From: Bacteroidia bacterium
Lineage (GTDB): Bacteria > Bacteroidota > Bacteroidia > Cytophagales > Flammeovirgaceae
Assembly: GCA_030425505.1 (NCBI GenBank)
Contig: JAUIAB010000018.1
Coordinates: 1 to 58,691 of the forward strand
DNA length: 58,691 nt
Reading direction: 5' to 3'
A program made the position numbers and the translations under genes. Below the pieces are notes generated by a model. The model made no database searches. It worked only from the letters and a program-made list of their open reading frames with translations, and was not told where the DNA came from. Shown here one piece after another: positions 9,768 through 55,065 of the stretch. Numbering within the stretch: the stretch's first letter is position 1; each line of letters starts with the position of its first letter.

Positions 9768-12700
9768 TTAGTTGCCATTTAGGCAGTCTTGTTGATCTCG
9801 TTCACAATCTCTAATGCATTGATCTTCATCATCTTCTCTAAAGCATCTGGAGGTACATTGTATGAATTCTCTTTCGCATGCAGCAGGGTTTATGTTGGGT
9901 GCTACCGATATGGTTATTTCATTAGGTTCGATGATATTAATTACCTGATTTTCCTGCTCAGCAGGAATGAAGTCTCTGATTCTCGCAATGGCTGTTCCTG
10001 TTTCCCCATCCTGAATTAGGAGACTTATTTTTATGAGTGCTCTTTCATTAAAAAACATTTGAAAATTTTCTGGAAGTTGCCCAATATTCTGCTTTAGAAT
10101 ACCATTAACTCTGATTTCATAGCTTACGGCTTCGGGGTTTGATAGTGCCTCTGTAGAGAACTGTAAAACTAAAGTTCCCCTTGTCGGTACATTAATGAAG
10201 CCGGACACTACATTTTCTGTATTTTCTATTCTTTTGAATCGAATAGAATTTCTGATATTTTGTTCATCATCTTCCAGCTCTTGCTCGCATTCATCTCGTA
10301 GCTGTTCACACTCCTCAAAACACCTATCGCCAAAGCAATCTATATTACAGAAAAAGAACTCTTCAGCACAATCTCTATTGTTATTCTCTTCTTCTTCACC
10401 ATCCTCTTCTTCATTGTCAGAATGGTTTGCATAGTTATATTCAAAACGTTTTATAATGTTTCCTTCATGGTCTTTTATGGATTTTAGTCGATTGAAGGTG
10501 TCATATTGGTAGTATTCTATTATACCTGAAGGAGAGGTAATACTTGTTAGTCCTATCCCTGGGTCATAGGTATAACTTGTGATCATGGCATCGGGTAGGG
10601 CTACTCTTAATCTTGCTATTTCATCTCTTAAGCGCTGTTCGTTACAATCTTCTCTTTCAAGACAGTTGTCGTTGTCTTGTTGTGCGACAGCTTTTATGTC
10701 TTCTGCAAAACCTTCCAGCTCTTCGTAGGTAGTGTTTTCAGCTTTAAGAAGAAGGTTTTCATTATTATACCCCCAGATCATAGCGGTAGTAGAACCATCG
10801 GGGATGTGGTATTGCAGCAAGTTGCCGATGCTGTCATATTGATCATAGGTAACCCTATTTTCATAGAGTTCGAGGTTTGGATTAGCTGGATTTTGAGTAT
10901 TAGGTGCTTGATTTGTTTCTAAAGGGTTTTCCAGTTTGGCAGTCCAAATTTTAGAAGCGAAAGTTTTATTGCTATCTCCGAAGAAATTGTATTCTGTTAT
11001 TTTACTATTGGTAAGATAGCTTTCGGAGAAGTTATTATCTTCATCTCTTGGATCGCCTAGTACAACGTAATCATAGTATACTTTATTTTCTTGTATAATG
11101 GGTATAAGGTAGTGCATGTCCACCATTTTGTTGGTTACAGGGGTATCAAAGTCGAAAGGATATTGGAAAGTAGTTATTTGCCTGTCTCCTTCATTGTTGA
11201 CTTCAGCTTTAGCTCTAAGCATTAGGTTATCTATTCCTCCACGGGTATTGTTGTCTAAATAGTTGTAATAGGTTTCTTTTTTAAAGCTAATACGATTATC
11301 AGTATAGTCTTTTTCAATGGTGGAGGTTAGAAGCATTTGCTCTGACCGTATCTTGCGCTTTGATTTAAGACGGAGATATATAGAAGAAGATACTCTACTC
11401 TCATAAGTAGACCAAATGTTCATATGGGCTCGAGAAATTAGCTTATAATTGTGCTCTATTGTTTTGATAGGAGTTTGTGAATGCGGATCTGTATTATCGA
11501 AATAGGATATTTTTTTTAGTTTTCCTCGTCTTATTTCTCTATTTTCCATTTCAAAGAAAGGGAAATAGGTTTTTTCTAAGGCATGCTTTAGGATACTTGG
11601 TGAGCATGATTTTACTACTTGTATCTCTGTTGGCTTATCAAGGTCATCTGTGTATTCGTAAGTAATCCATCCCAGGTTACTGCCTTCTTCATCCACCTTG
11701 AATACCTCTACTGTTGTATATCCTACATAGTTGCCTGAGTTAGACCCCAGAATTGCCTGGTTTTGCCAAGACTTTGCTAAAACGCTATCATAGTCATCAT
11801 TTTTAGGAAGTTTAGCAGGAAACCCTAGTTGAGGTAAAGGGCCAGGAATAAACCCATATCCAGTACCATATCTATATTGTGTTGTTATAGGCTTTTTATC
11901 TTTTTTTGAATAGCTTATTACTTTATTAATTCTTATTCCGCCTCCAGTGAATCTATATGGACTTAGTCTCGTATTACCTTTTCTCATCATAAACTTGTTT
12001 GACTCGTATTGGAATATTTTATAGCCACCAGTTGGATAGTCTATTCTTTGTAGCATGCCATAATCAGCTACTCTAGGGTTGCAAGATCGATCATTGCCAT
12101 TAGTTACAATAGATGCAGGTCTATCATCCATTTCAAAAGGCAGGTATCCAACTTTGTCATCATTGAAAGGTTCATTTACTATGTTTTCATAAATATAGAT
12201 TTTTGACAGAAAAGAATTAGCTTGGTTAGCATTGTAATAGCCCCATACATCTTGTTCATAAGAGTCTCTAGGGGGAAGCTCATTGATGGAATTGTAGCTA
12301 AATATATAGGGTGGAGTAGTGGTTTCAGTAAGCCTGGGAATTCCTTCAGAAAAGACTAATGCCTCTCTACCGATAGGAGTGATGCTTTTTAGATATAACC
12401 TTTTAGCGATAGCTTCCTGGTTATTATTTTTTGTTGCATACGCATAGTCAAAATCATAGGCTTTTAGTAGTTGATCATTACTATTATAGTGTGCTATTCT
12501 GGTATACGCTTTGTCATTTATAAGATCTTGTCGCTCGTGATCGGTATAAAATTTCACATAGCCACTTTTATATCTAATTTCATCTAAGACTTTTACTTCC
12601 TGAAGAGATACTCTTGATTCACATGATCCATAAGGTACTATACTTAGCTGTTTTAAAGAACACCCTGTTTCTCCTCCAAAGCTGGAAGTTTTTCGCATAT

Positions 12701-13586
12701 CATATTCAATACGATTAATGTTTTGATATTTGAATTCAATTTTTTCTTCAGTAGTAGGGTCTTCTATTGACGATAAATACCAGCTTGTATAACAAGCTGT
12801 ATTTCCAAGGTTTCCAGGTAAACAAGTACTTTCATTAGATTGCCATTCCTTTTCTACAAACCTATAGATTAAACCGTCATTATCAGTTATAGTAAATCCA
12901 TTATCGTTAGTTTTAAAACAAGTTAATTCTTCACAGTGTCTTTCCCCAAATTCTACAGGTATAAAAGGTGTTTCTATTTTAATGTCTTTTTTTTCTGTTA
13001 ATATTACTTTATCAATATTTTCAAAATAAAGCTTGCCTGATTTCCCAGGAAAACTATAAAAGTATGTATCTGGCTCTAGATCATATGTTGTACCTGCATC
13101 TCCAAATAGTGTTGCATCTTTGTTTTGAATATTTTCGTTTTTATAATGGAAATACCCTAAAACTTTACATGTGCTTTGGTCATAATCTCCAAATGGACAG
13201 GCATATTCATATTGAAATTCATCAGGATATCCTCGTACTGTTCTTGTTATTACACCTCCTGCCATTAAAGTCCAGCCTAAACCTACTCTGGAAGGTATTT
13301 CTTCTATCTTTATACCAGAAGCATGATAGCTTAGTTTGATGGGTATTTTTAGTCTTCCTGACTGAATATCAAATAAAGGGATTTCAATTGAAGGGATACC
13401 TGTGAAATAATCGATAGGGTGATCTATGTATTTGCCAAGAGAAGAAGCTTCTGGTGAGGGAGGGTCATAATTTTTTAATAGGCTATTTGTATTCTGAGCC
13501 TGTATGCTTTTTACATAAATAAAAGCTAAGATGGCAAGGGTTATTTTATAATATTGAACGCTTGTCGATATTTTTTTTATGCTCAT
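9768..13586 (-). CDS. Secreted RHS/YD-type protein with two Cys-rich C-terminal hairpins
   Basis: The 1272-residue product has an N-terminal signal sequence ending near SIQAQ. It then has the hallmark start of Bacteroidota RHS proteins: a Tyr-Phe-Thr-Gly-Ile-Pro motif, LSYHASGIKIEEI and RVGLGWTLMAGG. The middle is long and beta-rich. YD-type repeats appear late (SYTYDPGIGL and YYQYDTFNRLKSI). The C-terminal 200 residues are unusual: an acidic linker, a cysteine module spaced C-x6-C-x3-C-x4-C-x3-C-x6-C, a beta-rich segment, then a second module spaced C-x6-C-x3-C-x8-C-x3-C-x6-C that ends the protein. It lacks the usual RHS core (DHLGN, YYPFG), which the next gene does contain. A palindromic operator lies about 110 bp upstream of the start. 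Confident as an RHS-family exported protein; molecular role unknown. Confidence 0.88.
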   Translation of the reverse strand: MSIKKISTSVQYYKITLAILAFIYVKSIQAQNTNSLLKNYDPPSPEASSLGKYIDHPIDYFTGIPSIEIPLFDIQSGRLKIPIKLSYHASGIKIEEIPSRVGLGWTLMAGGVITRTVRGYPDEFQYEYACPFGDYDQSTCKVLGYFHYKNENIQNKDATLFGDAGTTYDLEPDTYFYSFPGKSGKLYFENIDKVILTEKKDIKIETPFIPVEFGERHCEELTCFKTNDNGFTITDNDGLIYRFVEKEWQSNESTCLPGNLGNTACYTSWYLSSIEDPTTEEKIEFKYQNINRIEYDMRKTSSFGGETGCSLKQLSIVPYGSCESRVSLQEVKVLDEIRYKSGYVKFYTDHERQDLINDKAYTRIAHYNSNDQLLKAYDFDYAYATKNNNQEAIAKRLYLKSITPIGREALVFSEGIPRLTETTTPPYIFSYNSINELPPRDSYEQDVWGYYNANQANSFLSKIYIYENIVNEPFNDDKVGYLPFEMDDRPASIVTNGNDRSCNPRVADYGMLQRIDYPTGGYKIFQYESNKFMMRKGNTRLSPYRFTGGGIRINKVISYSKKDKKPITTQYRYGTGYGFIPGPLPQLGFPAKLPKNDDYDSVLAKSWQNQAILGSNSGNYVGYTTVEVFKVDEEGSNLGWITYEYTDDLDKPTEIQVVKSCSPSILKHALEKTYFPFFEMENREIRRGKLKKISYFDNTDPHSQTPIKTIEHNYKLISRAHMNIWSTYESRVSSSIYLRLKSKRKIRSEQMLLTSTIEKDYTDNRISFKKETYYNYLDNNTRGGIDNLMLRAKAEVNNEGDRQITTFQYPFDFDTPVTNKMVDMHYLIPIIQENKVYYDYVVLGDPRDEDNNFSESYLTNSKITEYNFFGDSNKTFASKIWTAKLENPLETNQAPNTQNPANPNLELYENRVTYDQYDSIGNLLQYHIPDGSTTAMIWGYNNENLLLKAENTTYEELEGFAEDIKAVAQQDNDNCLEREDCNEQRLRDEIARLRVALPDAMITSYTYDPGIGLTSITSPSGIIEYYQYDTFNRLKSIKDHEGNIIKRFEYNYANHSDNEEEDGEEEENNNRDCAEEFFFCNIDCFGDRCFEECEQLRDECEQELEDDEQNIRNSIRFKRIENTENVVSGFINVPTRGTLVLQFSTEALSNPEAVSYEIRVNGILKQNIGQLPENFQMFFNERALIKISLLIQDGETGTAIARIRDFIPAEQENQVINIIEPNEITISVAPNINPAACEREFIQCTSRCFREDDEDQCIRDCERDQQDCLNGN

Positions 13587-14015
13587 GGTAAGTTATAACT
13601 TGAATCTACTCTTCTAATTTTCTTTTATGGTGTAGCAATAATTTTATATTGCTTTCAGGTGCAAAAAGAATCACTAATTTTCTATTTAGCATCATAGTAG
13701 TGGTTGATATTTATAAATTTCAACTACAAAATTAGATTGTAATTATTTGATATACAGAAGGTTATGGTTAATTTTTCTGATTTTTCAGTTTTTGGTTATT
13801 TGCTTGTAGATATGCACTAATTTTGCCTAAAATCAAAGGAATTTGGGCTTGGTCGAGCTTCTTCTTGGTGTTGTAAATTAGTTCTTGTAGTAGATTTAAC
13901 TGGTATAATTTTTAATTCAGAAAGGGAAGGCATAAAGTTATATCATCGGTTTTATCAGACGTTGGCTTCTCTCATGGTTTCCATAAAATACACGAAATAG
14001 AAATACAAAAAGCAC
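13587..14015. other. Intergenic region between aroC and the RHS operon
   Basis: About 430 bp with no supported ORF. It holds the palindromic operator at 13,698-13,727 and so should contain the promoter of the RHS/giant-gene operon. I saw no exact TAnnTTTG element at the expected distance on the minus strand. No strong terminator hairpin was found after aroC. Confidence 0.5.
13698..13727 (-). promoter_or_regulatory. Shared inverted-repeat operator, RHS operon copy
   Basis: Read on the minus strand this site contains GTTGAAATTTATAAAT followed by ATCAACCACTA. The core is identical to sites at 47,285 and 52,341. The arms GTTGA and TCAAC are inverted around ATTTATAAAT. It sits about 110 bp upstream of the RHS gene start. 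About 60 bp of flanking sequence also resembles the inverted copy at 47,310-47,370. It is probably a transcription-factor site. Confidence 0.7.
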
Positions 14016-44700: not shown

Positions 44701-45910
44701 GGCAGCATACTCTTTGGTAGCATATCAAACGGCTTATTTAAAGGCAAATTATCCTGCAGAGTATATGTCTGCTGTGCTGAGCAACTGGTTAGGGAATATT
44801 GATAAAATCAGTTATTTCCTCGAAGAGTGCAAGCGTATGGATATCAATGTTTTAGGGCCTGATGTGAATGAGAGTTTGAGAACCTTTAATGCCAATAAGG
44901 AAGGGAATATTCGATTTGGTCTTGCTGCGATAAAAGGGGCAGGAGATGCAGCAGTAGATTCTATAATTGATGAGAGGAAAGAAGGCGGGGCATTTGGTGA
45001 TATCTGGGATTTTATTGAAAGAGTAAACTTGCGATCTGTCAATAAAAAGACGGTAGAAAGTCTTGCTTATGCAGGTGCTTTTGACTCTTTCAATGAAGTG
45101 AACCGAGCGCAACTATTTTATAAGCCCGATGGTGATCAGACCACTGGGATAGAGAAGCTGATAAAGCATGGTAATAATGCTCAGGCAGAAAAACAATCCG
45201 CTCAGATCAGCTTATTTGGAGATGCAGAAAGTAAAGAGTTTATCCGACCAAAACTCCCTGCCTGCGAGCCATGGATTGAGCTTTTGAAGCTGAAATATGA
45301 GAAAGAAGTGGTTGGGTTTTATTTGTCGGGTCATCCTTTAGATCTTTTTAAAGAGGAGTTGGATCATTTTTGTGTTCCTTTGATGAAAGTTCAAGAGTTA
45401 AAAGGCAAAGAAGTAAATGTGGGAGGGGTGATTTCGTCTGTAACTCTGAAATATGGGAAAAATGGAAGCCAGTTTGCGCTATTTACTGTGGAAGATTACT
45501 TCAGCTCTCAAAATATGGCATTATTTGGGGAGACTTTTTTGAAAAATGCACATATTATAAAACCTGGTGAATTTGTATTCATCAAAGGAAAAGTAGAAGA
45601 GAGATACAATCAGCCTGGACAGTGGGAGTTTTCTCCCAAGCAACTGATGCCATTGGCGGATGTAAAGGATAAAATGTGTAACAAAATTAAGTTTCAGTTT
45701 GAGTCCAAGAGCTTATCTGAAAAAGACATTGAAGAAATACATCGGTTGGTAGAGGAATTTCCTGGAAAGTGCAATTTAGAGTTTGAAATAATGGATGCAG
45801 AAAAAAACCTCCGACTTCCATTAATGACAAGAAGTTATAGAGTAGAACTTTCAAAGGAGTTTTTAGAAGGGGTAAAGAAAATCCCTAATGTAGAATTTTC
45901 ATTAGCTTAG
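41738..45910 (+). CDS. dnaE: DNA polymerase III alpha subunit with fused DnaQ-like exonuclease
   Basis: The replicative polymerase catalytic subunit, 1390 residues. Residues 1-205 are a DEDD proofreading exonuclease (FDTETTGL with Asp6/Glu8, VGHNVDFDIHIVGAEM, GDAHDAAYDVDATA). A PHP domain starts near 239 (LHVHSQFSILQSPASV, TDHGNLHGAF). The polymerase core has VGPGRGSAAGSVVAYC and the catalytic aspartates in MPDIDIDFDDRGR (about 634-646), then TGIHAAGVIIAPDD, MALYRPGPMQFIP-like MNALYRPGPMQF, and GFNRSHSAAYSLVAYQTAYLK. The C-terminus has an OB domain (VNVGGVISSVTLKYGKNGSQF). A similar fused architecture is, to my recollection, known in other Bacteroidota. Its end overlaps the convergent M50 gene by 9 bp. 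Confidence 0.96.
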   Translation: MYLIFDTETTGLPQRYDAPIEDLDNWPRLVQLAWQLHDANGNLLSAGNRIVKPEGFTIPFNSEKVHGISTEMALKEGYPLGEVLKEFEKDVAKAEILVGHNVDFDIHIVGAEMLRASHSSGFMSKRKIDTKDESTDYVAIPGRGGRYKWPTLTELHYKLFGKGFGDAHDAAYDVDATARCFFELIKVGVVMPEEGVLVKDIQYEAPELGEANFDKKEDSQKPGKAKQKEKLEKVIPFSHLHVHSQFSILQSPASVKQIVHKAKELKMPAVAITDHGNLHGAFYATGLADESIKVIIGCEFYLSKERKRHKFTKDDPDRRTQEVLIAKTVQGYKNLCKLSSIGFIEGFYAQVPRIDKDLVKEYSEGLIALTGNLYAEIPSLILNRGEEAAEEEFKWWHSIFKEDYYIELMRHGLPEEDRVNEVLLKFSEKYNVKIIASNNAYYLDKENSSAHDALLCIKDGKQMSMPVGGGRSYRFALPNDQFYFKSQKEMNQLFVDLPEAIQNTNEIVEKCEQLKLDRDILLPAFPIPEEFGSEDDYLRHLTLEGAKENYEEVDEEVLQRIDHELSIIKEMGFPGYFLIVQDFIKAAREMGVIVGPGRGSAAGSVVAYCTGITNIDPIKYNLLFERFLNPERISMPDIDIDFDDRGRQKVIDWVVEKYGKNQVAQIVTYGTMAAKMSIRDVGRVLEYPLPDTNQLAKLVPEIPGMTLERAYVESKELKEIRNKKEGEDYEVVRLAETLEGSVRNTGIHAAGVIIAPDDLTEYIPVCTSKDADLLVTQFDGKVIENAGMLKMDFLGLKTLTIIKDALDLIEQNHGTRIDIDKIPLDDPKTFELYQRGETVATFQFESEGMRMYLKDLKPTHVEDLIAMNALYRPGPMQFIPNFINRKHGKERVDYPHPLLEEILSNTYGIMVYQEQIMQTAQILAGYTLGGADLLRRAMGKKKMEEMERQRAIFVEGAKEKNDIPKEKADEIFTIMEKFAAYGFNRSHSAAYSLVAYQTAYLKANYPAEYMSAVLSNWLGNIDKISYFLEECKRMDINVLGPDVNESLRTFNANKEGNIRFGLAAIKGAGDAAVDSIIDERKEGGAFGDIWDFIERVNLRSVNKKTVESLAYAGAFDSFNEVNRAQLFYKPDGDQTTGIEKLIKHGNNAQAEKQSAQISLFGDAESKEFIRPKLPACEPWIELLKLKYEKEVVGFYLSGHPLDLFKEELDHFCVPLMKVQELKGKEVNVGGVISSVTLKYGKNGSQFALFTVEDYFSSQNMALFGETFLKNAHIIKPGEFVFIKGKVEERYNQPGQWEFSPKQLMPLADVKDKMCNKIKFQFESKSLSEKDIEEIHRLVEEFPGKCNLEFEIMDAEKNLRLPLMTRSYRVELSKEFLEGVKKIPNVEFSLA

Positions 45911-47041
45911 GTTGTATTTGGTTCTTTCTTTTTTATAGATTGTTGCCCTCACTTTTTTGATAATCCAGCCGATTATTATGCTATACACGAAAGTAAGAAG
46001 CATATTATTTGATAGAAAGTCAGCTATATATAAGTTATTGTTTTTTAGCTCTTTATATAGATCTAACAGATATAGAAAAAAATCCACACCATAGTTAAAT
46101 ATCAGATTGTAAGCGATAAGTGCAATGAAGACATAGCTAAATATTCCATAAGCAAATAAGCGATAGTTTTTGATCTTTTTTCTGTAAAGTAAAACATCAA
46201 TTAATTGCCTATTAGAGGCTTCTTTTAAGTTTGGTAATTCTATGAAATCAGATAATACCCAATACCCATCAGATCTAAACAAAGGATTTAAATTGTAGAT
46301 AGATCGAATAGAAAAAGCAATAAGTAGGTTAAGCGGAGAGATATTTAATGATAACAGAATAAAAGATACTATCGTCAATAAGATAAACTCAAAATAAATG
46401 CCCGAAAGGCTAATTATTATTCGCTCTCTCTTTTCTAAAGACCAACTCATTGAAACATTAGAATAAAGAATTGGTTGAAAAATATAAAAACCAAACCCAA
46501 TCGGTGATGATTTTCCTGAGTATTTATATAGGGAAGTTACATGACCAAACTCATGAATGAACATGGTCAATATGTAGTATCCGAAAAAGCCAATAGAAGG
46601 CACATTGTATAATATGTCTTTGTTTAAAAAATAAACTTGACCCAATACAGCGGAAAAAAGTAAGAGCGAAGTAAAAAAAGCCCGTTGACTAATTAGAAAC
46701 GATAATGCCTTACAAATGCTCAGGTTAAAATTGGAAGAGAAAAGAATGACTTTTACTTTTAAATAAGTGCTTCTTAACTCCTTATCTCCTTTTAGGGCAT
46801 AGGTATCTGTTAAACAGCGGAATAAATTCCCATTGCAAAAAATTTCAATGTCATTTTTTAACAATAACCCTTGATCTCTGAAGTGTTGAGTAGCCTGTAT
46901 TAAATTGCCTTCTTTTGACCAATATTTGATAAAGTCTAATACGGATTGGTTTATAACAAAATGCTTGTTAAGAGCATGAATGCTTAGTACGTAACTAGTG
47001 CTATTCTGTTTGCGAACCATGTAATCGTTAACTATCCTCAT
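45902..47041 (-). CDS. Membrane M50-type zinc metalloprotease of the RiPP locus
   Basis: A 379-residue protein. Residues about 15-65 resemble a small winged-helix PqqD-like fold (SYVLSIHALNKHFVINQSVL). Multiple membrane helices then contain the zinc site H163-E-x-x-H167 in MFIHEFGHVTSLYK and a third-ligand region NLNPLFRSDGYWVLSDF (Asp258). This pattern is the M50 (site-2-protease-like) family often seen in peptide-export and RiPP clusters, such as YydH-type proteins. It is divergent from the dehydratase operon across a region carrying two shared operators, so it probably belongs to the cluster. It may trim the precursor, act in export, or give immunity; which of these is not shown. Confidence 0.78.
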   Translation of the reverse strand: MRIVNDYMVRKQNSTSYVLSIHALNKHFVINQSVLDFIKYWSKEGNLIQATQHFRDQGLLLKNDIEIFCNGNLFRCLTDTYALKGDKELRSTYLKVKVILFSSNFNLSICKALSFLISQRAFFTSLLLFSAVLGQVYFLNKDILYNVPSIGFFGYYILTMFIHEFGHVTSLYKYSGKSSPIGFGFYIFQPILYSNVSMSWSLEKRERIIISLSGIYFEFILLTIVSFILLSLNISPLNLLIAFSIRSIYNLNPLFRSDGYWVLSDFIELPNLKEASNRQLIDVLLYRKKIKNYRLFAYGIFSYVFIALIAYNLIFNYGVDFFLYLLDLYKELKNNNLYIADFLSNNMLLTFVYSIIIGWIIKKVRATIYKKERTKYNLS

Positions 47042-47532
47042 AGCTGATAAAATTTATCGCTTTGCTGTAAGCAATTAAGATCTGGCTACTAAGTCATTTC
47101 TAATCTCTCCTCAAGTTCTGTGACCTGAAAGTTTTTTACTTTCTTTAAATCTATTTTTTCCATTTGATGATAAATTTGAAATCATACCTACTCTTTTAGA
47201 AAGGCTTTTCGGTTTCCTCCTTTTATTATTGCAGCAATAATCTGAGGTCAAATCAATAGATAAGCTGAGGGTATTCAAAAAAGTAGTAGTTGAAATTTAT
47301 AAATATCAAGTTGTTATTTATAAATTTCAACTAATAAATAGATGGTTTAAGTAATTGATATTCAGTTTATTGAAATGATTTTATTGGATAGTAGCCTAAA
47401 AAATTTGTCTTTAAGGGTTTAACGCCAAAATAATCAAGGAAACAGACTGTGTCTGATCTAAAATGGAGACACATTCGAAGCAATAATTAAGATGTGTGCC
47501 AAACAAAAAGGCAGGTCAAAAATTTCAAAAAG
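47042..47532. other. Divergent promoter region between the M50 protease and the dehydratase
   Basis: About 490 bp that must serve both transcription directions. It holds a head-to-head pair of the shared operator (47,285-47,334). A 14-codon frame (47,492-47,536) overlaps the dehydratase start. Nothing else is recognised. Confidence 0.6.
47285..47334. promoter_or_regulatory. Two head-to-head copies of the shared operator
   Basis: The left copy reads TAGTTGAAATTTATAAATAT on the plus strand. The right copy is its inverse (ATTTATAAATTTCAACTA), leaving a perfect 16-bp inverted repeat around an 11-base spacer. One copy points toward the dehydratase and one toward the M50 gene, which fits joint control of both sides. 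Confidence 0.75.
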
Positions 47533-49761
47533 ATGAAAAGTGCAAAAAAGTCATATCACTTCCTTTCTAAATACTGTTTGAGAACACCTCTTTTACCCTT
47601 AGAAAATTTTATAGATTTGATGGAGGGAGACAAAATAGAGGATACCTCTCTCCAATCGCAGTGGGAGAATCCTTTATTAAGAGAAGCGATATTTTTAGCT
47701 TCGCCTTATCTTCATGAGGAACTTTCCAAATGGTTTAACGAAGAAATAGAAGAGAACTCGAAAAAGGAAAAGCTTAAATACACCTTCCTAAAATACATTA
47801 TCAGAGCTTCCACACGTTGTACTCCTTTTGGCTTGTTTGCGGGGATAAGCACTGGAGAACTGTCGGATAGTTCAGAAATATCTTTGGAGGAAGTAGATAA
47901 CTACAAGCGACATACTCGGCTGGATATGAACTATTTAGTTGCTCTAATCAGGCATCTGGAAAAAGAGGCGAAGCTTAAAAAACAGTTACTGTACTTTCCA
48001 AACAGTACACTGTATTCTATAGCAAATCAGTATCGCTACATAGAATATGCCTTAGAAAAAAACACAAGACATTATTCTGTGGAAGCAATAGAAAAGTCGC
48101 CATACATAGAGGCTGTTTTAGAAACTTCCAAAACAGGAAAGACCATTGAGCAATTAGCAGACACTTTAATTGATGATGACATTTCCAAAGAGGAGGCGGT
48201 GGATTTTATCCATGATTTGATAGATAACCAACTCTTGGTAAGTCAGCTGGAACCTTCGGTAACAGGGAAAGAGTCTTTTGTAGCCTTATTAGAGGTTCTT
48301 GAGACTCTTAACTGCGAAAATGATTTAAAGGAGTTACTCGCCCTTAAAAAAAGTATTGCTGCACTTGATGAAGAAACAAGTAATTCAGAAAAAAAGTATG
48401 CCTCTGTTTTTGAGCACCTTGATAAGATAAAAGTTGATTATGATAAAAAATATGTGCTTCAAACAGATCTATTTACACAAACCAAAACGAATGGCTTGAG
48501 TGTAAAGCATGCGTATTCTATAAAAAGAGTTCTTCCTCTACTTTGCAAACTATGCCCTTCTGAAGAGAACTATAATTTAAAAACATTCCGAAAAGCATTT
48601 GTGGAGCGTTATGAAATGCAAGAAGTTCCATTAAGCCAGGCTTTGGATATAGAAACAGGTATCGGGTACCTTCAAAATCAAAGAATTTCGGATACAGTAC
48701 CTTTTTTAAACGATATTACACCTCAAAGGAAGGGGAGTGCGGAGAAAATAGTCGATTGGAGTCAGGTAGATAGTAGTATTTATAACAAATTATTAGAAGC
48801 TCAAAAAAGCAATAGCTATCAGTTAGAGCTGTCGGATGATGATTTTTCACATATTCAATTCAATTGGGAATATGTTCCAGATATAGTATCTGCATTTGCT
48901 GAAATTGTGAAAGTCGATGAAAACGAACAATTGGTATTAAGTGGGATTCATGCCAATGCAGCCAGTTTATTGGGACGTTTCTCTTATACCGGAACAGAAA
49001 TAGAAAAACATACCCAACATATAACCGCTTTGGAACAATCATTATACCCCGACAAGATATTGGCAGAGATTGTTCATTTGCCAGAGTCCCGAACGGGAAA
49101 TGTTTTGAAAAGATCTCATTTGAGAAATTACGAAATCCCTTATTTGGCAAAATCGAATCTTCCTGTTTCTCAGCAGATCCCACTTCAAGACTTAATGGTT
49201 TCTGTGAGAGGAGAAAGAGTAGTATTGAGATCTAAACGACTTAATAAAGAAGTTTTGCCTAAGTTGACGAATGCGCATAATTATGCTCCTAAAGCTCTTC
49301 CCATTTATCATTTTCTCTGCGACTTACAATTTCAGAGTCGAGTATCCCATCTGGGTTTTCGGTGGCCATCCATAACAGAAAAGCATTCTTTTTTGCCCAG
49401 GGTAATCTATAAAAATATCATTCTTTCTAAAGCGAAATGGAATTTGTCTGAAGATGATATAAAGACATTTTTAAAGTATAGAAAAGAAAGTAAAGCTTCC
49501 TTATTTACTTTTGTCCAAAAGTGGCGTCATGATAATCAAGTTCCTAAATATGTACAGTTTGTAGAACACGATAATACACTTTTGATCGACTTGGAGCATT
49601 ACGATAGCATCCAACTTTTGCTAGAGTGTATTAAAGGAAAGAAAAAAGGAAGGTTAGAAGAATTTTTACATGTAGCAGATGGTGTGGTGAAAAAAGATCA
49701 GAGGCATTTTACCAATGAGTGCATTATTACATTGTATAATCAGGATAAATTGAAAATTTAA
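47533..49761 (+). CDS. Lanthipeptide dehydratase, N-terminal (glutamylation) part
   Basis: A 742-residue protein of the Lant_dehydr_N family. LanB enzymes glutamylate Ser/Thr of a precursor using glutamyl-tRNA and then eliminate glutamate to give dehydroalanine/dehydrobutyrine. The hallmark IRASTRCTPFGLFAGISTGEL is present, with FLSKYCLRTPLLPLENF at the start, LDMNYLVALIRHLEKEA, and HLRNYEIPYLAKSNLPVSQQ with SKRLNKEVLPKLTNAHNY later. The frame opens at a GTG at 47,494; the ATG at 47,533 is preferred. The frame ends in TAA, and the elimination domain continues in the same frame in the next ORF, so together they resemble one full-length LanB cut by a single stop. Confidence 0.88.
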   Translation: MKSAKKSYHFLSKYCLRTPLLPLENFIDLMEGDKIEDTSLQSQWENPLLREAIFLASPYLHEELSKWFNEEIEENSKKEKLKYTFLKYIIRASTRCTPFGLFAGISTGELSDSSEISLEEVDNYKRHTRLDMNYLVALIRHLEKEAKLKKQLLYFPNSTLYSIANQYRYIEYALEKNTRHYSVEAIEKSPYIEAVLETSKTGKTIEQLADTLIDDDISKEEAVDFIHDLIDNQLLVSQLEPSVTGKESFVALLEVLETLNCENDLKELLALKKSIAALDEETSNSEKKYASVFEHLDKIKVDYDKKYVLQTDLFTQTKTNGLSVKHAYSIKRVLPLLCKLCPSEENYNLKTFRKAFVERYEMQEVPLSQALDIETGIGYLQNQRISDTVPFLNDITPQRKGSAEKIVDWSQVDSSIYNKLLEAQKSNSYQLELSDDDFSHIQFNWEYVPDIVSAFAEIVKVDENEQLVLSGIHANAASLLGRFSYTGTEIEKHTQHITALEQSLYPDKILAEIVHLPESRTGNVLKRSHLRNYEIPYLAKSNLPVSQQIPLQDLMVSVRGERVVLRSKRLNKEVLPKLTNAHNYAPKALPIYHFLCDLQFQSRVSHLGFRWPSITEKHSFLPRVIYKNIILSKAKWNLSEDDIKTFLKYRKESKASLFTFVQKWRHDNQVPKYVQFVEHDNTLLIDLEHYDSIQLLLECIKGKKKGRLEEFLHVADGVVKKDQRHFTNECIITLYNQDKLKI

Positions 49762-50619
49762 TTGGTGAGAAGAAAGTTTATATTAGGAGATGAATGGCTG
49801 TACTACAAGCTATATTGTGGGAGGAGGACGGCAGATTCTATTCTGGTAGATGCTATAAAACCGCTTTCCGAAAAGTTATTAAAAAAAGGTTGGATAGATC
49901 AGTGGTTTTTTATACGCTATACAGATCCCAGGCCTCACCTTCGAGTTCGTTTTCACCTTAAAAGGAAAGATGATTTAAGCTTCGTAATTGAAGAGTTTAA
50001 CGCATCTACCCGATACTATTTGGATAATGACCTTATTTGGGATCTGCAAACAGATACCTACCAAAGAGAACTCGAACGATATGGCACTAATACCATTTCT
50101 GAATCAGAAGAGTTGTTTTTTTATGATAGTGCAGCTTGTGTAGATGCATTGCAATACATAGAAGAGGATGAGCTTTTGTTTCTATTTGGGCTGCGTTCTA
50201 TAAAAGATACATTAACTGCTTTCGGATTGGACAACCACGAAAAGTGTACTCTTGCAGAATGGAATTTAAAAGCATTCAAAGAAGAGTTTAACTCTGACAA
50301 GCATTTGAGCAGGCAGCTGAGTAAAAAGCACCAAGCATTAAAGGATAAAATAGAACTTTTCTTGACGATAAATAGCCATCCAGAATATCAGCCATTATTA
50401 GATTTGCTCGATAAAAAGATGGAACAAATGAGGCGGATAAGCAAAAAAATAGCAGAAAAAGCTGTCCTAAACCAATTATCGATAGATAGTTTGCTCTCTA
50501 GTTATGTGCATATGATGGTCAATCGCTTGTTTAGAGATAAACAGCGTTTGTATGAGCTGGTATGTTATGATTGCTTACACAAGTTCTACAATTTTAAAAT
50601 TCATAAAAACGTAGATTAA
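49762..50619 (+). CDS. Lanthipeptide dehydratase, C-terminal (elimination) part
   Basis: A 285-residue protein of the SpaB_C/thiopeptide-type bacteriocin biosynthesis family, which removes glutamate from glutamylated Ser/Thr. Signatures: LGDEWLYYKLYCG, WFFIRYTDPRPHLRVRFHL, TYQRELERYG and the helical MMVNRLFRDKQR-containing tail. No ATG is near the start. The frame begins immediately after the TAA with TTG then GTG, in the same frame as the upstream dehydratase. Translation must use a weak start, re-initiation or read-through. Its stop overlaps the start of the regulator gene (TAATG). Confidence 0.85.
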   Translation: MVRRKFILGDEWLYYKLYCGRRTADSILVDAIKPLSEKLLKKGWIDQWFFIRYTDPRPHLRVRFHLKRKDDLSFVIEEFNASTRYYLDNDLIWDLQTDTYQRELERYGTNTISESEELFFYDSAACVDALQYIEEDELLFLFGLRSIKDTLTAFGLDNHEKCTLAEWNLKAFKEEFNSDKHLSRQLSKKHQALKDKIELFLTINSHPEYQPLLDLLDKKMEQMRRISKKIAEKAVLNQLSIDSLLSSYVHMMVNRLFRDKQRLYELVCYDCLHKFYNFKIHKNVD

Positions 50620-52310
50620 TGCCTATTAAAAAAAGTCTGGTAACGATCCTATTCCTGCTTTTTAGCCAAGTTGGGCTTTCTCAAACTGCAAAAATAGACT
50701 CCTTATCAAAAGAGGGCTTTAGCACACTGGAAGAGTATTTGGATAAAAACTATGTAGATTCTGTAAACGATGTAATTTATGCAAGGGCATACCTGAAAAA
50801 AGCTATTGAGCTAAAAGACACGATAACAATAGCCAGTGCTTATTATTATTTATGTAAAGCATCCAGATTAGAGAAAGCTTTTGCTTATAGTGATAGTATA
50901 ATACAAGTAACCAAACACCTTAAAGGTGATAAATATTACCCAGCTTTAGGTTATCTCCAAAAAGGGAATTGCTATTACGATGCCGGAAAGTATAAAGAAG
51001 CACTAGATTATTATTTAAAATGCTATAATATTAGTAAGCAAAATAATAACCCAATATATGCCCTTGCTGCAAAGCATAACATAGGACTTTTAAAAAATAA
51101 AATAGGGGAGAATAAAGAAGCTCTAAAAACCTTTCAATCTTACGTTAGTTATTTAGATGAAAGTGATATAGAAAATAAAGACTATTATTTAATACGAGGT
51201 TTATATTCTTTAGCAGATGCATATATTTATAACAACAAGAACGACTCTGCTGCTTTTACAATAAAAAGGGGAGGGGAGTATGCTATACAACTCAAAGATT
51301 CCTCAATGCATGCACATTACATCTATTTATCTGGAGTAAATGCTTATTTCTTAAAAAATTATAGAGCAGCAATTGATAGCATACTTAAAAGTAAACAAGT
51401 TTTTTATAGCGAGAATTTTAATGCCATCTCTAATTTATATTTGGGTAAATCTTATTATGCTCTAAGTAAAGAGGATAGTGCTTTTTTTTGTTTGGATAAA
51501 GTAGATGATTTTCTGGAAAAAACAAATAATGTCAAGCCTGAACTCCTTGAAATATACCTTGTATTAATTGAACTTCAAAAAAAAGCTAAAAATGTAGAGA
51601 AACAGCTTTATTATACCAATCGGCTTTTAAAGTTCGATAGCACACTAAGTGATAATAATACATATCTCTCTAAAAACATTATAAAAAAATATGAAGTTCA
51701 AGAATTGGTCGCATCTAAAAACAAGATTATTCAAGAGTTGAAAGGAGAAAATAAAATCTCTAGGAAGTATATATACTTTCTTTTAGTTCTGGCAGCTATT
51801 CTTTTGATTTCTACTTTACTCTACATAAGAAATAGCTTATCCAATAAGCGCAAGTACAAAGAGCTTATGGAGAGTCTAAGGCAAGATAAGGAGGAGTCTA
51901 AAACACAAAGCGATAATGTAAAAATCCTTAGCAATAGTGAAGTTCCAGAGCATTTGGCAAAAGAAATTTTGATAGCCCTGAGTAAGTTTGAAGAGTCCAA
52001 TAGGTTTATTCGTAAAAAATACACTCTAAACATGCTTGCCAAAGAAATCAACACAAACAGCACTTATCTCTCTAAAGTTATTAATATGACAAAGCAAACC
52101 AGTTTTGTTCATTATTTGAATGATTTGAGAGTTGATGTTGCCATTGAGAAATTATCTACCAATAAGCAGTTTAGGATGTATACTGTAAAAGCAATAGCAG
52201 AGAGTACAGGCTTCAATACAGCGCAGTCTTTTTCCAATGCTTTCTACAAAAAGACAGGAATTTACCCTTCTTATTTCATAAAACAGCTAAATAGTGAAGA
52301 TTCACTTTAA
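50619..52310 (+). CDS. Membrane-anchored TPR/AraC-type transcriptional regulator
   Basis: A 563-residue one-component regulator. It has a signal sequence (LVTILFLLFSQVGLSQ), then about 330 residues of TPR-like helices (GYLQKGNCYYDAGKYKEALDY and similar). A transmembrane helix (YIYFLLVLAAILLISTLLYI, near 384-403) and a coiled linker follow. The C-terminus is an AraC-type double HTH (MLAKEINTNSTYLSKVINMT; AIAESTGFNTAQSFSNAFYK with TGIYPSYF). The periplasmic TPRs presumably sense a peptide or protein while the HTH acts inside. Its start overlaps the dehydratase stop by one base, so it is part of the operon. It is the best candidate for binding the three-locus operator and driving the precursor. 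Confidence 0.86.
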   Translation: MPIKKSLVTILFLLFSQVGLSQTAKIDSLSKEGFSTLEEYLDKNYVDSVNDVIYARAYLKKAIELKDTITIASAYYYLCKASRLEKAFAYSDSIIQVTKHLKGDKYYPALGYLQKGNCYYDAGKYKEALDYYLKCYNISKQNNNPIYALAAKHNIGLLKNKIGENKEALKTFQSYVSYLDESDIENKDYYLIRGLYSLADAYIYNNKNDSAAFTIKRGGEYAIQLKDSSMHAHYIYLSGVNAYFLKNYRAAIDSILKSKQVFYSENFNAISNLYLGKSYYALSKEDSAFFCLDKVDDFLEKTNNVKPELLEIYLVLIELQKKAKNVEKQLYYTNRLLKFDSTLSDNNTYLSKNIIKKYEVQELVASKNKIIQELKGENKISRKYIYFLLVLAAILLISTLLYIRNSLSNKRKYKELMESLRQDKEESKTQSDNVKILSNSEVPEHLAKEILIALSKFEESNRFIRKKYTLNMLAKEINTNSTYLSKVINMTKQTSFVHYLNDLRVDVAIEKLSTNKQFRMYTVKAIAESTGFNTAQSFSNAFYKKTGIYPSYFIKQLNSEDSL

Positions 52311-52340
52311 CTTTCTGTTAATCATTATTTTATAATTGAA

Positions 52341-52376
52341 TTTAGTGGTTGAAATTTATAAATATCAACCACTAAA
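52341..52376 (+). promoter_or_regulatory. Shared operator upstream of the RiPP precursor, most symmetrical copy
   Basis: A 36-base near-perfect palindrome. The arms TTTAGTGGTTGA and TCAACCACTAAA flank ATTTATAAAT, with one mismatched A/A pair. It begins 30 bp after the regulator stop and ends 14 bases before a TAnnTTTG element, where the -33 TTG would lie. That layout fits an activator-dependent promoter. Confidence 0.8.
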
Positions 52377-52390
52377 ATTAGGTTTTTTAG

Positions 52391-52398
52391 TAAGTTTG
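52391..52398 (+). promoter_or_regulatory. Bacteroidota -7 element (TAAGTTTG) of the precursor gene
   Basis: An exact TAnnTTTG match 46 bp before the precursor ATG. No TTG -33 element is seen at the usual spacing; the palindrome takes that place. Confidence 0.6.
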
Positions 52399-52443
52399 GT
52401 GATACTTTTACCAAGTACAATTTTAAACGTAAACTACAATATC

Positions 52444-52599
52444 ATGAAGAAAATTAAAGAACAAAAATTAGGTATTAAGAAATTTCAGATTGCAAAAATC
52501 AATAATCCTTCTGTGATAAATGGAGGTGATTATAATAATGGAGATGTAAGTGGTGATAATAAACAACAAACAAAGCCACCAAAAAGAAAAACATTATAG
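52444..52599 (+). CDS. RiPP precursor peptide, double-Gly leader, no cysteine
   Basis: A 51-residue peptide. The leader LGIKKFQIAKINNPSVINGG resembles Bacteroidota class I lanthipeptide leaders (basic start, alternating hydrophobics, ending in Gly-Gly at 27-28). The 23-residue core begins Asp-Tyr-Asn-Asn, contains Ser36, Thr43 and Thr50, is rich in Asn/Gly/Lys, and has a Pro-Pro in TKPPKRKTL near the end. There is no Cys anywhere, so lanthionine rings cannot form within it. The frame opens further upstream at 52,336, but the ATG at 52,444 follows the promoter and begins MKKIKEQK; the longer version would run through the operator. It has its own promoter and terminator, as precursors often do for high expression. 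Confidence 0.72.
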   Translation: MKKIKEQKLGIKKFQIAKINNPSVINGGDYNNGDVSGDNKQQTKPPKRKTL

Positions 52600-52878: not shown

Positions 52879-55065
52879 ATGAAGAAAACTCTATCTGTTT
52901 TATGGATTAGTATACTTATATCCAATTGTACAACTAGTAAAAAGTCTTTTTCACCGCCTCCTTTATTTCCTGAAGAGATAGTAACAGATAACTATTTTGG
53001 AAAAGAGGTTAAAGATCCTTACCGAAACTTAGAAAACCTAGAAGACTCCAGTGTGATTAAGTGGTTAAAAGATCAGGAAAAGTATGCTAAAAACCTTCTT
53101 CATGAGATTCCAGGAAGGCTTAAACTAAAAGAAAATATATATGCTTTAGATAAGAAAAGAGATACTGCTGCCTGGAACTTAAGAATCAAATCCAATAACT
53201 TATACTTCTATCTAAAAAGTGTTCCTGAAAAAGATAATGATAAGTTATACTATAGAAGTGGTTATGAAAGTAAAGAAATTTTTTTATTTGATGTTACTAG
53301 TTATAAAAAAGAGTATTCGATCAATTACATAAGTCCAAATTATGATGGTTCTAAAGTAGTTATTAGTATGGCCAAAGGCGGAGCAGAAATTGGTGAAATG
53401 ATAATTTTAGATGTTGCAAGCAAAACGTTGCATAAAGAAGTCATTACGAATTGTTGGCCATCAGAATTAGGGGGTGTTTCTTGGTTTCAGGATAATAAAA
53501 GTTTTATATATACGCATATACCAGATGTTGATAAAAACTCGAATGGGTATACGCAAAATACCGCATCTGTATTGTATACTATAGGTCAGGATCCAAAAAA
53601 ATTAAAAGTAATTCTATCCAAAAAAAACAATCCAGAATTAAAAATAATCCCAGAAGACTTTCCAATAGTTAAAGTAATTAAAAAAGGCAATCAAGAAATT
53701 CTATTTGGTGGAATAGAAGGAGTTGGGAGTTATTCTGATTATTATTATGTAGAAAATTTTAGTAAAAATGAGTCTAGAGTAAACTGGAAGTCACTTTACA
53801 AAAAAGAAAATAAAGTAAAGAGTTTTTATGTATCAGAGAGTAATATCATCTTTACAAGTGCTCAAAATGCTTCTAACTTCAAAATATATAGCACTCCATT
53901 GTCCAATCCTGATTTTGTGAACTGTGAAACCTTAGTAGAAGAGGATAAAAATGCAGTTATTACAGATGTAGCACTATCAAAGGATGGGATCTATTATGTA
54001 AAGACAAAAAACGGGGTAGAAGCGAAGTTGTTCAGGTATGATTATGAGAAAAGAAAATCTTATCCTATACCCATCCCACACCCAGCAGGGTTTATTTATG
54101 TATATACCAGAGGATACGAATTTAATGATGTATGGATTAAAACATGGGGATGGACTCAAAAGGGAGAGCGGTATAGGTATAAGCCTGAAGATAAGACCTT
54201 TACCAAAGAAAATATATTCCCTAAAACTAGTTATGCTGAGTTAGAGGATGTAGTAATAGAAGAAATAGAAGTTCCTTCTCATGATGGTGTAATGGTTCCG
54301 CTATCCATTATTTATAGGTCAGGGCTAAAAAAGGATGGTAATAACCGACTATTAATTGCTGGGTACGGTGCATATGGGTCTTCTAGTGTTCCTTACACTA
54401 GAGGTGATATGCTTCACTGGATTAATGAAAGTGGAGTCTTTGCTGTTGCGCATGTGCGGGGTGGTGGAGAAAAAGGAGATGCCTGGCGCAAAGGAGGGTA
54501 TAAAAAAACAAAGCCCAATACATGGAAAGATTTTATTGCTTGCACAGAATACTTAATTAATGAAAAATACACGTCTTCTTCTAAAGTTGCAGCTAAAAGT
54601 GAAAGTGCTGGTGGAATCTTAATTGGAAGAGCCATAACAGAGCGCCCTGATTTGTACAAAGTTGCAATTATTGAAGTAGGAACTGTAAATACTATTCGTA
54701 GAGAGTTTGGTGCTAATGGTAAAAATAATATAAAAGAATATGGAACGGTTAAAGATTCTGCTGAGTTCACTTATTTATTAGAAATGGATACCTATCATCA
54801 CGTTAAAGAAGGAGTTAAATACCCAGCAGTCTATTTAACAGCAGGAATGAATGATGCCAGAGTACCTGCATGGCAGCCTGGGAAGCTAGCCGCTAAAATG
54901 CAAGCTCTCAATACTTCTGAAAACCCTGTATTATTTTCTGTAGATTTTGATGGAGGTCATGGAGTTGGAGCATCTGTCAGTAAATACAATGAGGAGTTAG
55001 TAGATATACTTTCTTTTGCTTTGTGGCAAACGGGGCATCCAGATTATCAGTTGAAGGAGGAGTAA
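52879..55065 (+). CDS. Prolyl-oligopeptidase (S9A) lipoprotein
   Basis: A 728-residue serine peptidase exported as a lipoprotein (signal ILISNCTTS with the acceptor Cys at about 17). After a propeller domain the catalytic domain shows Ser576 in SESAGGILIGRA (the usual G-x-S-x-G-G has Ser at the first Gly), Asp659 in AGMNDARVPAWQ, and His694 in DGGHG. N-terminal DNYFGKEVKDPYRNLENL is typical of the family, which cuts short peptides after proline. It lies 280 bp downstream of the RiPP precursor, whose core contains Pro-Pro. It may therefore process or degrade that peptide, but S9A lipoproteins also occur alone in Bacteroidota, so the link is inference. Confidence 0.9.
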   Translation: MKKTLSVLWISILISNCTTSKKSFSPPPLFPEEIVTDNYFGKEVKDPYRNLENLEDSSVIKWLKDQEKYAKNLLHEIPGRLKLKENIYALDKKRDTAAWNLRIKSNNLYFYLKSVPEKDNDKLYYRSGYESKEIFLFDVTSYKKEYSINYISPNYDGSKVVISMAKGGAEIGEMIILDVASKTLHKEVITNCWPSELGGVSWFQDNKSFIYTHIPDVDKNSNGYTQNTASVLYTIGQDPKKLKVILSKKNNPELKIIPEDFPIVKVIKKGNQEILFGGIEGVGSYSDYYYVENFSKNESRVNWKSLYKKENKVKSFYVSESNIIFTSAQNASNFKIYSTPLSNPDFVNCETLVEEDKNAVITDVALSKDGIYYVKTKNGVEAKLFRYDYEKRKSYPIPIPHPAGFIYVYTRGYEFNDVWIKTWGWTQKGERYRYKPEDKTFTKENIFPKTSYAELEDVVIEEIEVPSHDGVMVPLSIIYRSGLKKDGNNRLLIAGYGAYGSSSVPYTRGDMLHWINESGVFAVAHVRGGGEKGDAWRKGGYKKTKPNTWKDFIACTEYLINEKYTSSSKVAAKSESAGGILIGRAITERPDLYKVAIIEVGTVNTIRREFGANGKNNIKEYGTVKDSAEFTYLLEMDTYHHVKEGVKYPAVYLTAGMNDARVPAWQPGKLAAKMQALNTSENPVLFSVDFDGGHGVGASVSKYNEELVDILSFALWQTGHPDYQLKEE

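What the first reader, a model, noticed from the sequence alone, without database searches (positions are those of the whole stretch)
47533..52599. RiPP locus with dehydratase but a cysteine-free precursor and no cyclase
The locus has both LanB activities and a precursor with a lanthipeptide-like double-Gly leader. The core has Ser36, Thr43 and Thr50 but no Cys, and no LanC gene is in the window. The product could be a linear peptide with dehydroamino acids, one cross-linked through Lys, or one that pairs with another precursor. This departs from classical class I lanthipeptides.
Basis: partly seen in the sequence, partly recalled or inferred. Interest (0 to 1): 0.8.

Follow-up and report, generated by a model that had tools for sequence, protein, structure and literature searches.

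The report
Cysteine-free dehydratase-modified peptide with own regulator
A bacterium carries enzymes that normally begin the making of ring-shaped lantibiotic peptides, but no ring-closing enzyme was found and its peptides contain no cysteine; the same stripped-down set recurs in related bacteria next to a membrane-bound gene regulator and shared DNA switches, which suggests a secreted, possibly signalling, peptide.

Summary
The window has a split class I dehydratase (LanB-N, LanB-C; 9 of 9 known catalytic residues kept), a TPR/transmembrane/HTH_18 regulator and a 51-aa double-Gly precursor without Cys. The held genome (95.7% complete) has one LanB-N and no PF05147 LanC. Its second precursor with this leader, on another contig beside the only C39 exporter, is Cys-free too. 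LanB-N lies in a supported clade (99/99) of loci from other genera without their own LanC. Fifteen such loci (14 in that clade) have 0, 1 or 2 Cys in the core (6, 6, 3), against 1-9 in 21 cores from LanC-bearing relatives.
New here: a palindromic operator-like site lies upstream of the precursor (14 of 15 loci) and, as a 21-22 bp tandem pair, upstream of LanB-N (10 of 15), with the regulator gene beside them. I read it as a LanC-independent dehydrated-peptide system in an autoregulated circuit. That the peptide is the regulator's ligand (a pheromone) is the boldest reading; a co-regulated secreted effector is the main rival. No product was seen. It is a new variant of split-LanB RiPPs, not a lanthipeptide by definition.

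The parts
47290..47330 (.). tandem operator-like sites (47290-47309 and 47311-47330, 21 bp apart) upstream of LanB-N
   Evidence: pair with 0 mismatches to TTYATRAA twice; 0 of 100 shuffles as good
47533..49761 (+). LanB-N, glutamylation subunit of a split class I dehydratase (742 aa from ATG; an in-frame GTG lies at 47494)
   Evidence: PF04738; R91, R95, T97, D131, D312, R482 kept
49762..50619 (+). LanB-C, glutamate-elimination subunit (285 aa)
   Evidence: TIGR03891/PF14028; R63, R106, H250 kept
50619..52310 (+). one-component regulator: signal-peptide-like N-terminus, TPR superhelix, one TM helix, C-terminal HTH_18
52349..52368 (.). single palindromic operator-like site upstream of the precursor
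52444..52599 (+). precursor peptide, 51 aa, no Cys
52444..52527 (+). leader, residues 1-28, ends in Gly-Gly
   Evidence: alignment; LxLxKx5L-like leader (Ile for Leu twice) as described in PMC7268733 (passage)
52528..52596 (+). core, residues 29-51, with Ser36, Thr43, Thr50
52879..55065 (+). S9 prolyl-oligopeptidase-like protein with lipoprotein-like N-terminus; in the neighbourhood of 5 of 15 loci, so an optional accessory
13704..13723 (.). further operator-like site, 118 bp upstream of the YD-repeat ORF 9768-13586 (-)

Best explanation
The locus makes a small exported peptide without LanC. LanB-N glutamylates Ser/Thr of the core with Glu-tRNA and LanB-C eliminates glutamate, giving Dha/Dhb; with no Cys and no LanC the product stays without lanthionine (inferred from kept catalytic residues and absences). 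The Gly-Gly leader is cut and the core exported by the genome's single C39 ABC exporter with HlyD, encoded on contig C6 beside a second Cys-free precursor (inferred; in 6 of 15 loci homologues of that pair lie in the same stretch as LanB). A membrane-spanning TPR-HTH_18 regulator, encoded in the window between LanB-C and the precursor, acts on a palindromic site upstream of both LanB-N and the precursor (sites shown; binding inferred from neighbourhood), so that enzyme, regulator and peptide form one autoregulated circuit. What the TPR domain senses is not shown; the peptide itself is the favoured guess because a regulator gene and a precursor gene are neighbours throughout the set.
For: Clade 99/99 of 16 LanB-N rows: 14 with TPR-HTH and no LanC of their own, L004 (contig ends) and L123. 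9 of 9 catalytic residues in the window; the six of LanB-N in 19 of 19 rows checked, the three of LanB-C in 16 of 16 (residue list from a passage of PMC12241602). No LanC in the own genome and in 11 of the 15 genomes that hold these loci. Cys per core 0/1/2 in 6/6/3 of 15, against 1-9 in 21 cores found in 14 of 20 LanC-bearing loci; Fisher p 0.0026 for 0 Cys and 4e-6 for at most 1 Cys, rows not independent. Upstream of the precursor a site with at most 1 mismatch in 14 of 15 loci, shuffles mean 5.0, maximum 10; upstream of LanB-N a tandem pair with at most 1 mismatch in 10 of 15, in each of the ten 0 of 100 shuffles as good. Own genome: second set of site, regulator, site, precursor, C39, HlyD; C39 and HlyD homologues together in L100, L107, L110, L114, L117, L124. 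Sensor: TPR superhelix; a profile search hits RapF, RapJ, RapH, RapI among others; Foldseek puts Rap with pheromone at rank 38 and RapJ-CSF at 40, behind many LGN-peptide and other TPR entries.
Against: No product, binding or expression data. The 15 loci were picked because regulator and precursor were recognised; L123, inside the clade, shows neither LanB-C, regulator nor precursor in 19.7 kb. In the own genome two regulator paralogues (C19, C27) sit beside cargo without a GG precursor, and the site also precedes lipoprotein, GLPGLI and YD-repeat genes, so regulator-cargo pairing need not mean receptor-ligand. Any TPR superhelix may hit Rap proteins. 9 of 15 precursors keep 1-2 Cys, so Cys loss is a trait of part of the set. 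The tandem pair fails in L006, L096 (one site), L097 and L125 and is weak in L003. Sites are not exclusive: exact cores upstream of 4 of 19 LanC-bearing cassettes, 8 of 19 with 1 mismatch. Four of the 15 genomes have a LanC elsewhere. The window's own precursor matches no NCBIfam model; 7 of 14 precursors match the class I leader model NF038153 at E <= 1, best 6e-5.
Confidence: 0.5

Rival explanations
1. Same biosynthesis, but the peptide is an output, not a signal: a secreted effector or bacteriocin switched on by a TPR-HTH regulator that senses something else, together with lipoproteins and YD-repeat proteins.
For: In the own genome the site precedes several unrelated secreted-type genes and two paralogous regulators have non-precursor cargo; regulator paralogues keep the HTH (79-95% identity) while TPR residues 100-200 differ more (57-78%), as for sensors of different cues.
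Against: In the 815 kb (30%) of G889 scanned, matches with at most 1 mismatch lie only in the LanB locus, so there the circuit looks local. Core charge does not decide: 12 of 15 cores are acidic or neutral (the window's is +2), but so are 20 of 21 from LanC loci.
Confidence: 0.3
2. LanB-C does other chemistry or the dehydro residues are captured: a pyritide-like [4+2] ring, lysinoalanine, or adducts.
For: LanB-C relatives include pyridine synthases (recalled); pyritide and pearlin clusters also lack LanC and Cys (PMC11002830, passages).
Against: The TbtD/PbtD model gives 15.1 bits against a cut-off of 325, TIGR03891 gives 222.5; glutamate-elimination residues are kept; one Lant_dehydr_C protein is in the locus, and the rest of the genome was not searched for a second.
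Confidence: 0.1
3. A lanthipeptide cluster in decay that lost LanC and Cys and makes nothing.
For: The neighbouring clade of split LanBs carries LanC (20 of 21 rows) and Cys-rich precursors.
Against: Open genes and all catalytic residues at 36-51% identity across genera, conserved order and operator-like sites. Selection itself (dN/dS) was not tested.
Confidence: 0.07

Closest known systems
Class I lanthipeptides of Bacteroidota with split LanB (pinensin type)
   Same: Split LanB with both half-reactions' residues; LxLxKx5L-like GG leader and C39 protease, as described for Bacteroidetes LanAs in PMC7268733 (passages)
   Different: No LanC found, no Cys in either own precursor, so no lanthionine can form within the peptide; TPR-HTH regulator and operator-like sites in the cassette
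Pearlins and pyritides
   Same: LanB homologue with Cys-free precursor and no LanC (PMC11002830, passages)
   Different: Pearlins have a short LanB without elimination domain; here the elimination subunit is present. No [4+2] enzyme recognised in the locus
RRNPP quorum-sensing pairs (Rap-Phr and kin)
   Same: TPR regulator gene beside a small peptide gene; TPR fold similarity
   Different: Here the regulator is predicted membrane-spanning with an HTH_18 domain in a Gram-negative, and the peptide has a LanB-type leader; RRNPP receptors are cytoplasmic or intracellular (PMC9765709, PMC10075063, abstract starts in the listing)
Nisin autoinduction (NisRK)
   Same: Idea of a LanB-modified peptide inducing its own operon (recalled)
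   Different: Nisin has Cys rings and a two-component system (recalled); here a one-component TPR-HTH protein, and induction is untested

Membership tests
Class I lanthipeptide | LanB dehydratase with glutamylation and elimination domains | tested here: met
Class I lanthipeptide | LanC cyclase | tested here: not met
   0 PF05147 matches in the held genome, 95.7% complete
Class I lanthipeptide | Cys in the core to form (Me)Lan | tested here: not met
   0 Cys in the window core and in the C6 core
Class I lanthipeptide | Bacteroidetes LanA-type leader ending in GG | tested here: met
   L9-x-I11-x-K13-x5-I19 (Ile for Leu twice) and GG; but no NCBIfam model match for the window peptide itself
Pearlin (PEARL) | Short LanB lacking an elimination domain | tested here: not met
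   LanB-C present with R63, R106, H250
Pyritide/thiopeptide | [4+2] pyridine synthase | tested here: inconclusive
   LanB-C scores 15.1 bits on TbtD/PbtD, cut-off 325; rest of genome not searched
RRNPP-type quorum sensing | TPR regulator gene adjacent to a small peptide gene | tested here: met
   the loci were picked with both present
RRNPP-type quorum sensing | Cytoplasmic receptor | tested here: inconclusive
   Hydropathy (residues 379-408) and model show a TM-like helix, which speaks against; no localisation
RRNPP-type quorum sensing | Peptide binds the receptor | not testable with these tools
   no binding data

The most novel reading that the evidence does not exclude
A Gram-negative peptide pheromone family: LanB-dehydrated, lanthionine-free peptides exported by a C39 ABC transporter are sensed outside the inner membrane by a transmembrane TPR-HTH_18 regulator encoded next to the precursor; in the window's genome several paralogous regulators with one shared operator extend this to a regulon of secreted proteins.
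Probability: 0.28. Interest if true: 0.85.

Novelty: new variant of a known kind. Interest (0 to 1): 0.62.

Why it matters
Genome surveys that anchor on LanC (as PMC7268733 appears to have done, passages) would not see these loci, and annotation by LanB alone would file them as ordinary lanthipeptides. If the product is a Dha/Dhb peptide with no thioether ring, LanB would have a role outside lanthipeptides, thiopeptides and pearlins. If the peptide is the regulator's ligand, it would be a peptide signalling circuit of a Gram-negative phylum with a predicted, testable operator, receptor and exporter.

Tried and rejected
A LanC or a Cys-containing partner elsewhere in the genome: searched, not found. 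The third match (C35, E 0.27) was taken as chance. The M50 protein (45902-47041, -) as part of the system: matches in 5 of 38 genomes (own included); those in G984 and G1156 are on other contigs than the LanB locus or precursor, and in G001 one lies about 12 kb from a fused LanB; left out as peripheral. A wide regulon as a general trait: in 815 kb of G889 (30% of its contig; pattern read on one strand, it is nearly its own reverse complement) the only matches with at most 2 mismatches are two in the LanB locus, so the wide regulon is shown only for the own genome, and there only as sites. S9 peptidase as obligatory: 5 of 15 loci. Core charge as a sign of a signal: dropped, LanC-locus cores are alike. 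Literature on a TPR-HTH regulator with a LanB peptide: 9 paper searches listed nothing whose title or abstract start names such a pair; only open-licence PMC is held, and a Tenacibaculum-specific 'class I lanthipeptide' cluster in PMC10734526 (passages) might be the same kind.

Rows dropped before counts: one hit each was kept for L003, L100 and L107. Dropped were two L003 hits of the neighbouring LanC cassette (both with Cys), two L100 GG ORFs in the same stretch, nearer to its C39 exporter (one Cys-free, one with 1 Cys) and one L107 GG ORF (Cys-free). L004 (contig end), L123 (no LanB-C, regulator or precursor recognised) and L126 (outside the clade, no precursor found) are not among the 15; L097 is, although it falls outside the 99/99 clade. 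Six of the 20 LanC-bearing loci given to one search yielded no precursor; LanC-bearing fused-LanB loci and L091, L099 were not given to it. One search found more than one leader match in G652, G889, G794 and A. longa; those extra peptides were not examined except in L100.
Full report
Observation. The window holds, on the + strand, LanB-N (47533-49761), LanB-C (49762-50619), a regulator (50619-52310) and, 133 bp further on, a 51-aa precursor (52444-52599), followed by an S9 peptidase (52879-55065).

Enzyme. LanB-N aligns over nearly its whole length with MadB (9g04), and over most of it with MibB and NisB; LanB-C aligns with MadB and in part with MibB. PMC12241602 (passage) lists nine residues essential for glutamylation and elimination. 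All nine are present in the window; the six of LanB-N are kept in 19 of 19 rows checked and the three of LanB-C in 16 of 16 (the 19 include one LanC-bearing locus, L091). This argues for a full dehydratase and against a pearlin-type short LanB.

Genome context. The own genome (2.95 Mb, 41 contigs, 95.7% complete) has one LanB-N, no PF05147 LanC, one C39 peptidase match and one further clear precursor with this leader (C6:3219, E 3.7e-12; ORF 3219-3407). The C6 locus reads: site, TPR-HTH paralogue, site, Cys-free precursor, C39 ABC exporter, HlyD. So the dehydratase is on one contig and the exporter on another, each with a precursor and a regulator.

Relatives. One protein search of genome contigs gave five loci. 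In the order most hits are fused enzymes of about 1,050 aa. I fetched 51 stretches, not all hits: 38 with a short LanB-N and 13 with a fused one. LanC was recognised in stretches by phmmer with three LanC references at E 1e-5. In 15 loci (the window among them) a TPR-HTH gene lies with LanB-N and LanB-C, no LanC belongs to the cassette, and a precursor was readable; these were picked for having all of this. The regulator gene lies between LanB-C and the precursor in 13 of 15; in L006 the precursor lies between, and in L097 the regulator is divergent. In L003 a separate LanB/LanC cassette is next door, its LanC 6.4 kb away. A tree of 58 LanB-N rows puts 14 of the 15 in one clade of 16 (99/99), with L004 (contig ends) and L123 (no LanB-C, regulator or precursor recognised; a row that does not fit). 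The neighbouring clade of 21 (95/97) holds 20 LanC-bearing loci and L102, where no LanC was recognised. L097 falls outside both. Ten rows were labelled 'other' (no LanC and no regulator call, among them L004, L102, L123, L126 and the fused L127, L128, L132), so lack of a nearby LanC is not unique to the clade. The window's nearest row is Tenacibaculum ovolyticum (51% identity); with L094 and L100 they form a 100/99 set whose four precursors are all Cys-free. In the window's own family the four other LanB-N matches are three fused and one short, at 30-37% identity, so horizontal acquisition is likely (inference).

Cysteine. Cores of the 15 loci have 0, 1 or 2 Cys in 6, 6 and 3 cases; 21 cores from 14 of 20 LanC-bearing loci have 1-9. 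Genome-wide, 11 of the 15 genomes have no PF05147 match (12 of the 16 given to the call, which included G1077); G652 (1), G409 (1), A. longa (3) and Aquimarina MMG016 (1) do. Of the six genomes whose linked precursor is Cys-free, four have no LanC match at all. Several Cys-bearing cores share an end like STLVC, SVLC or SKLC where L100 has PTLVT: the Cys-free ones may derive from a one-Cys form (inference).

Operator. Upstream of the precursor, a site with at most one mismatch to ATTYATRAAT occurs in 14 of 15 loci (shuffles: mean 5.0, maximum 10 of 15); exact cores in 9 of 15 (shuffles mean 0.37, maximum 3). In these 14 it starts 78-125 bp before the ATG, in many as the centre of a longer palindrome; L006 has none. 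Upstream of LanB-N, a pair of sites 21-22 bp apart with at most one mismatch in all occurs in 10 of 15; in each of the ten, none of 100 shuffles did as well. Upstream of the precursor such pairs (at 20-23 bp) reach one mismatch in 2 of 15 (L107, L110). Control: upstream of 19 LanC-bearing cassettes exact cores occur in 4 and cores with at most one mismatch in 8, so the signal is strong but not exclusive; several of those loci also have TPR-HTH genes. The pattern was chosen after seeing the sequences, so the shuffles measure enrichment, not an independent prediction. In the own genome the 20-bp form has 19 places with at most 2 mismatches against 3 for the reversed control, among them near three further TPR-HTH paralogues (C6, C19, C27) and before lipoprotein, GLPGLI and YD-repeat genes. 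In 815 kb of G889, the two matches with at most 2 mismatches both fell in the LanB locus; six weaker ones (3 mismatches) include two more in that locus.

Regulator. Signal-peptide-like start, TPRs, a hydrophobic stretch at 379-408 and HTH_18. The AlphaFold2 model from four sequences (mean pLDDT 79.7, pTM 0.58) shows a TPR superhelix, a long helix and the HTH. Foldseek ranks LGN-peptide complexes first and Rap-pheromone entries at 38 and 40; a profile search also hits Rap proteins, behind LGN and others. This fits peptide binding but is not specific. Regulator-precursor neighbours also occur in LanC-bearing loci L103, L108 (two), L111, L112 and, with a partial regulator, L113.

Reading. Shown: genes, residues, absences within the searches named, clade, shared sites. 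Inferred: dehydration, leader cleavage by the C6 exporter, binding of the site by the TPR-HTH protein. Guessed: that the peptide is the ligand. By definition it is not a lanthipeptide (no LanC found, no Cys), though close kin of that kind; I file it as a new variant.

Noticed in passing
window 45902-47041 (-): M50-type membrane metalloprotease resembling daptide HExxH (76.1 bits) and YydH/LiaK (57.1 bits) RiPP proteases, both below cut-off; starts 249 bp from the tandem sites, on the other strand.
   Followed up: partly
window 9768-13586 (-) and L157:4992-8966 (-): Two large secreted-type proteins similar to each other (133 bits), the first over the YD-repeat cut-off, the second below it, each with the operator-like site 100-118 bp upstream.
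   Followed up: partly
L152:6722-10635: Tandem operator-like sites before a 76-aa secreted-type protein, a GLPGLI family protein and an 873-aa protein with a signal-like start; homologues of the last two lie in the LanB stretches L101 and L097.
   Followed up: partly
L152:13967-16377: TPR-HTH paralogue flanked by sites; 80 bp after the second is a 63-aa ORF without GG, possibly a different kind of peptide.
   Followed up: no
L154:15371-15562 and L155:8672-8866: Minus-strand ORFs: one resembles the complement of a TPR-HTH gene end, the other ends like the C-terminus of the window's S9 peptidase, both beside the site: possible gene remnants.
   Followed up: no
L127:9081-13840: Fused LanB with an ABC exporter, no LanC recognised in 17.8 kb, and two GG ORFs, one without Cys and one with a single Cys: maybe an independent LanC-less case.
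   Followed up: no
L108:12082-16800: LanC-bearing locus with two successive TPR-HTH/precursor neighbours plus a third Cys-rich precursor.
   Followed up: no
precursors of L101, L110, L114, L117, L124: Recurrent Cys-ended motif (STLVC, SVLC, SKLC) in cores of loci without LanC of their own; its role is open.
   Followed up: no
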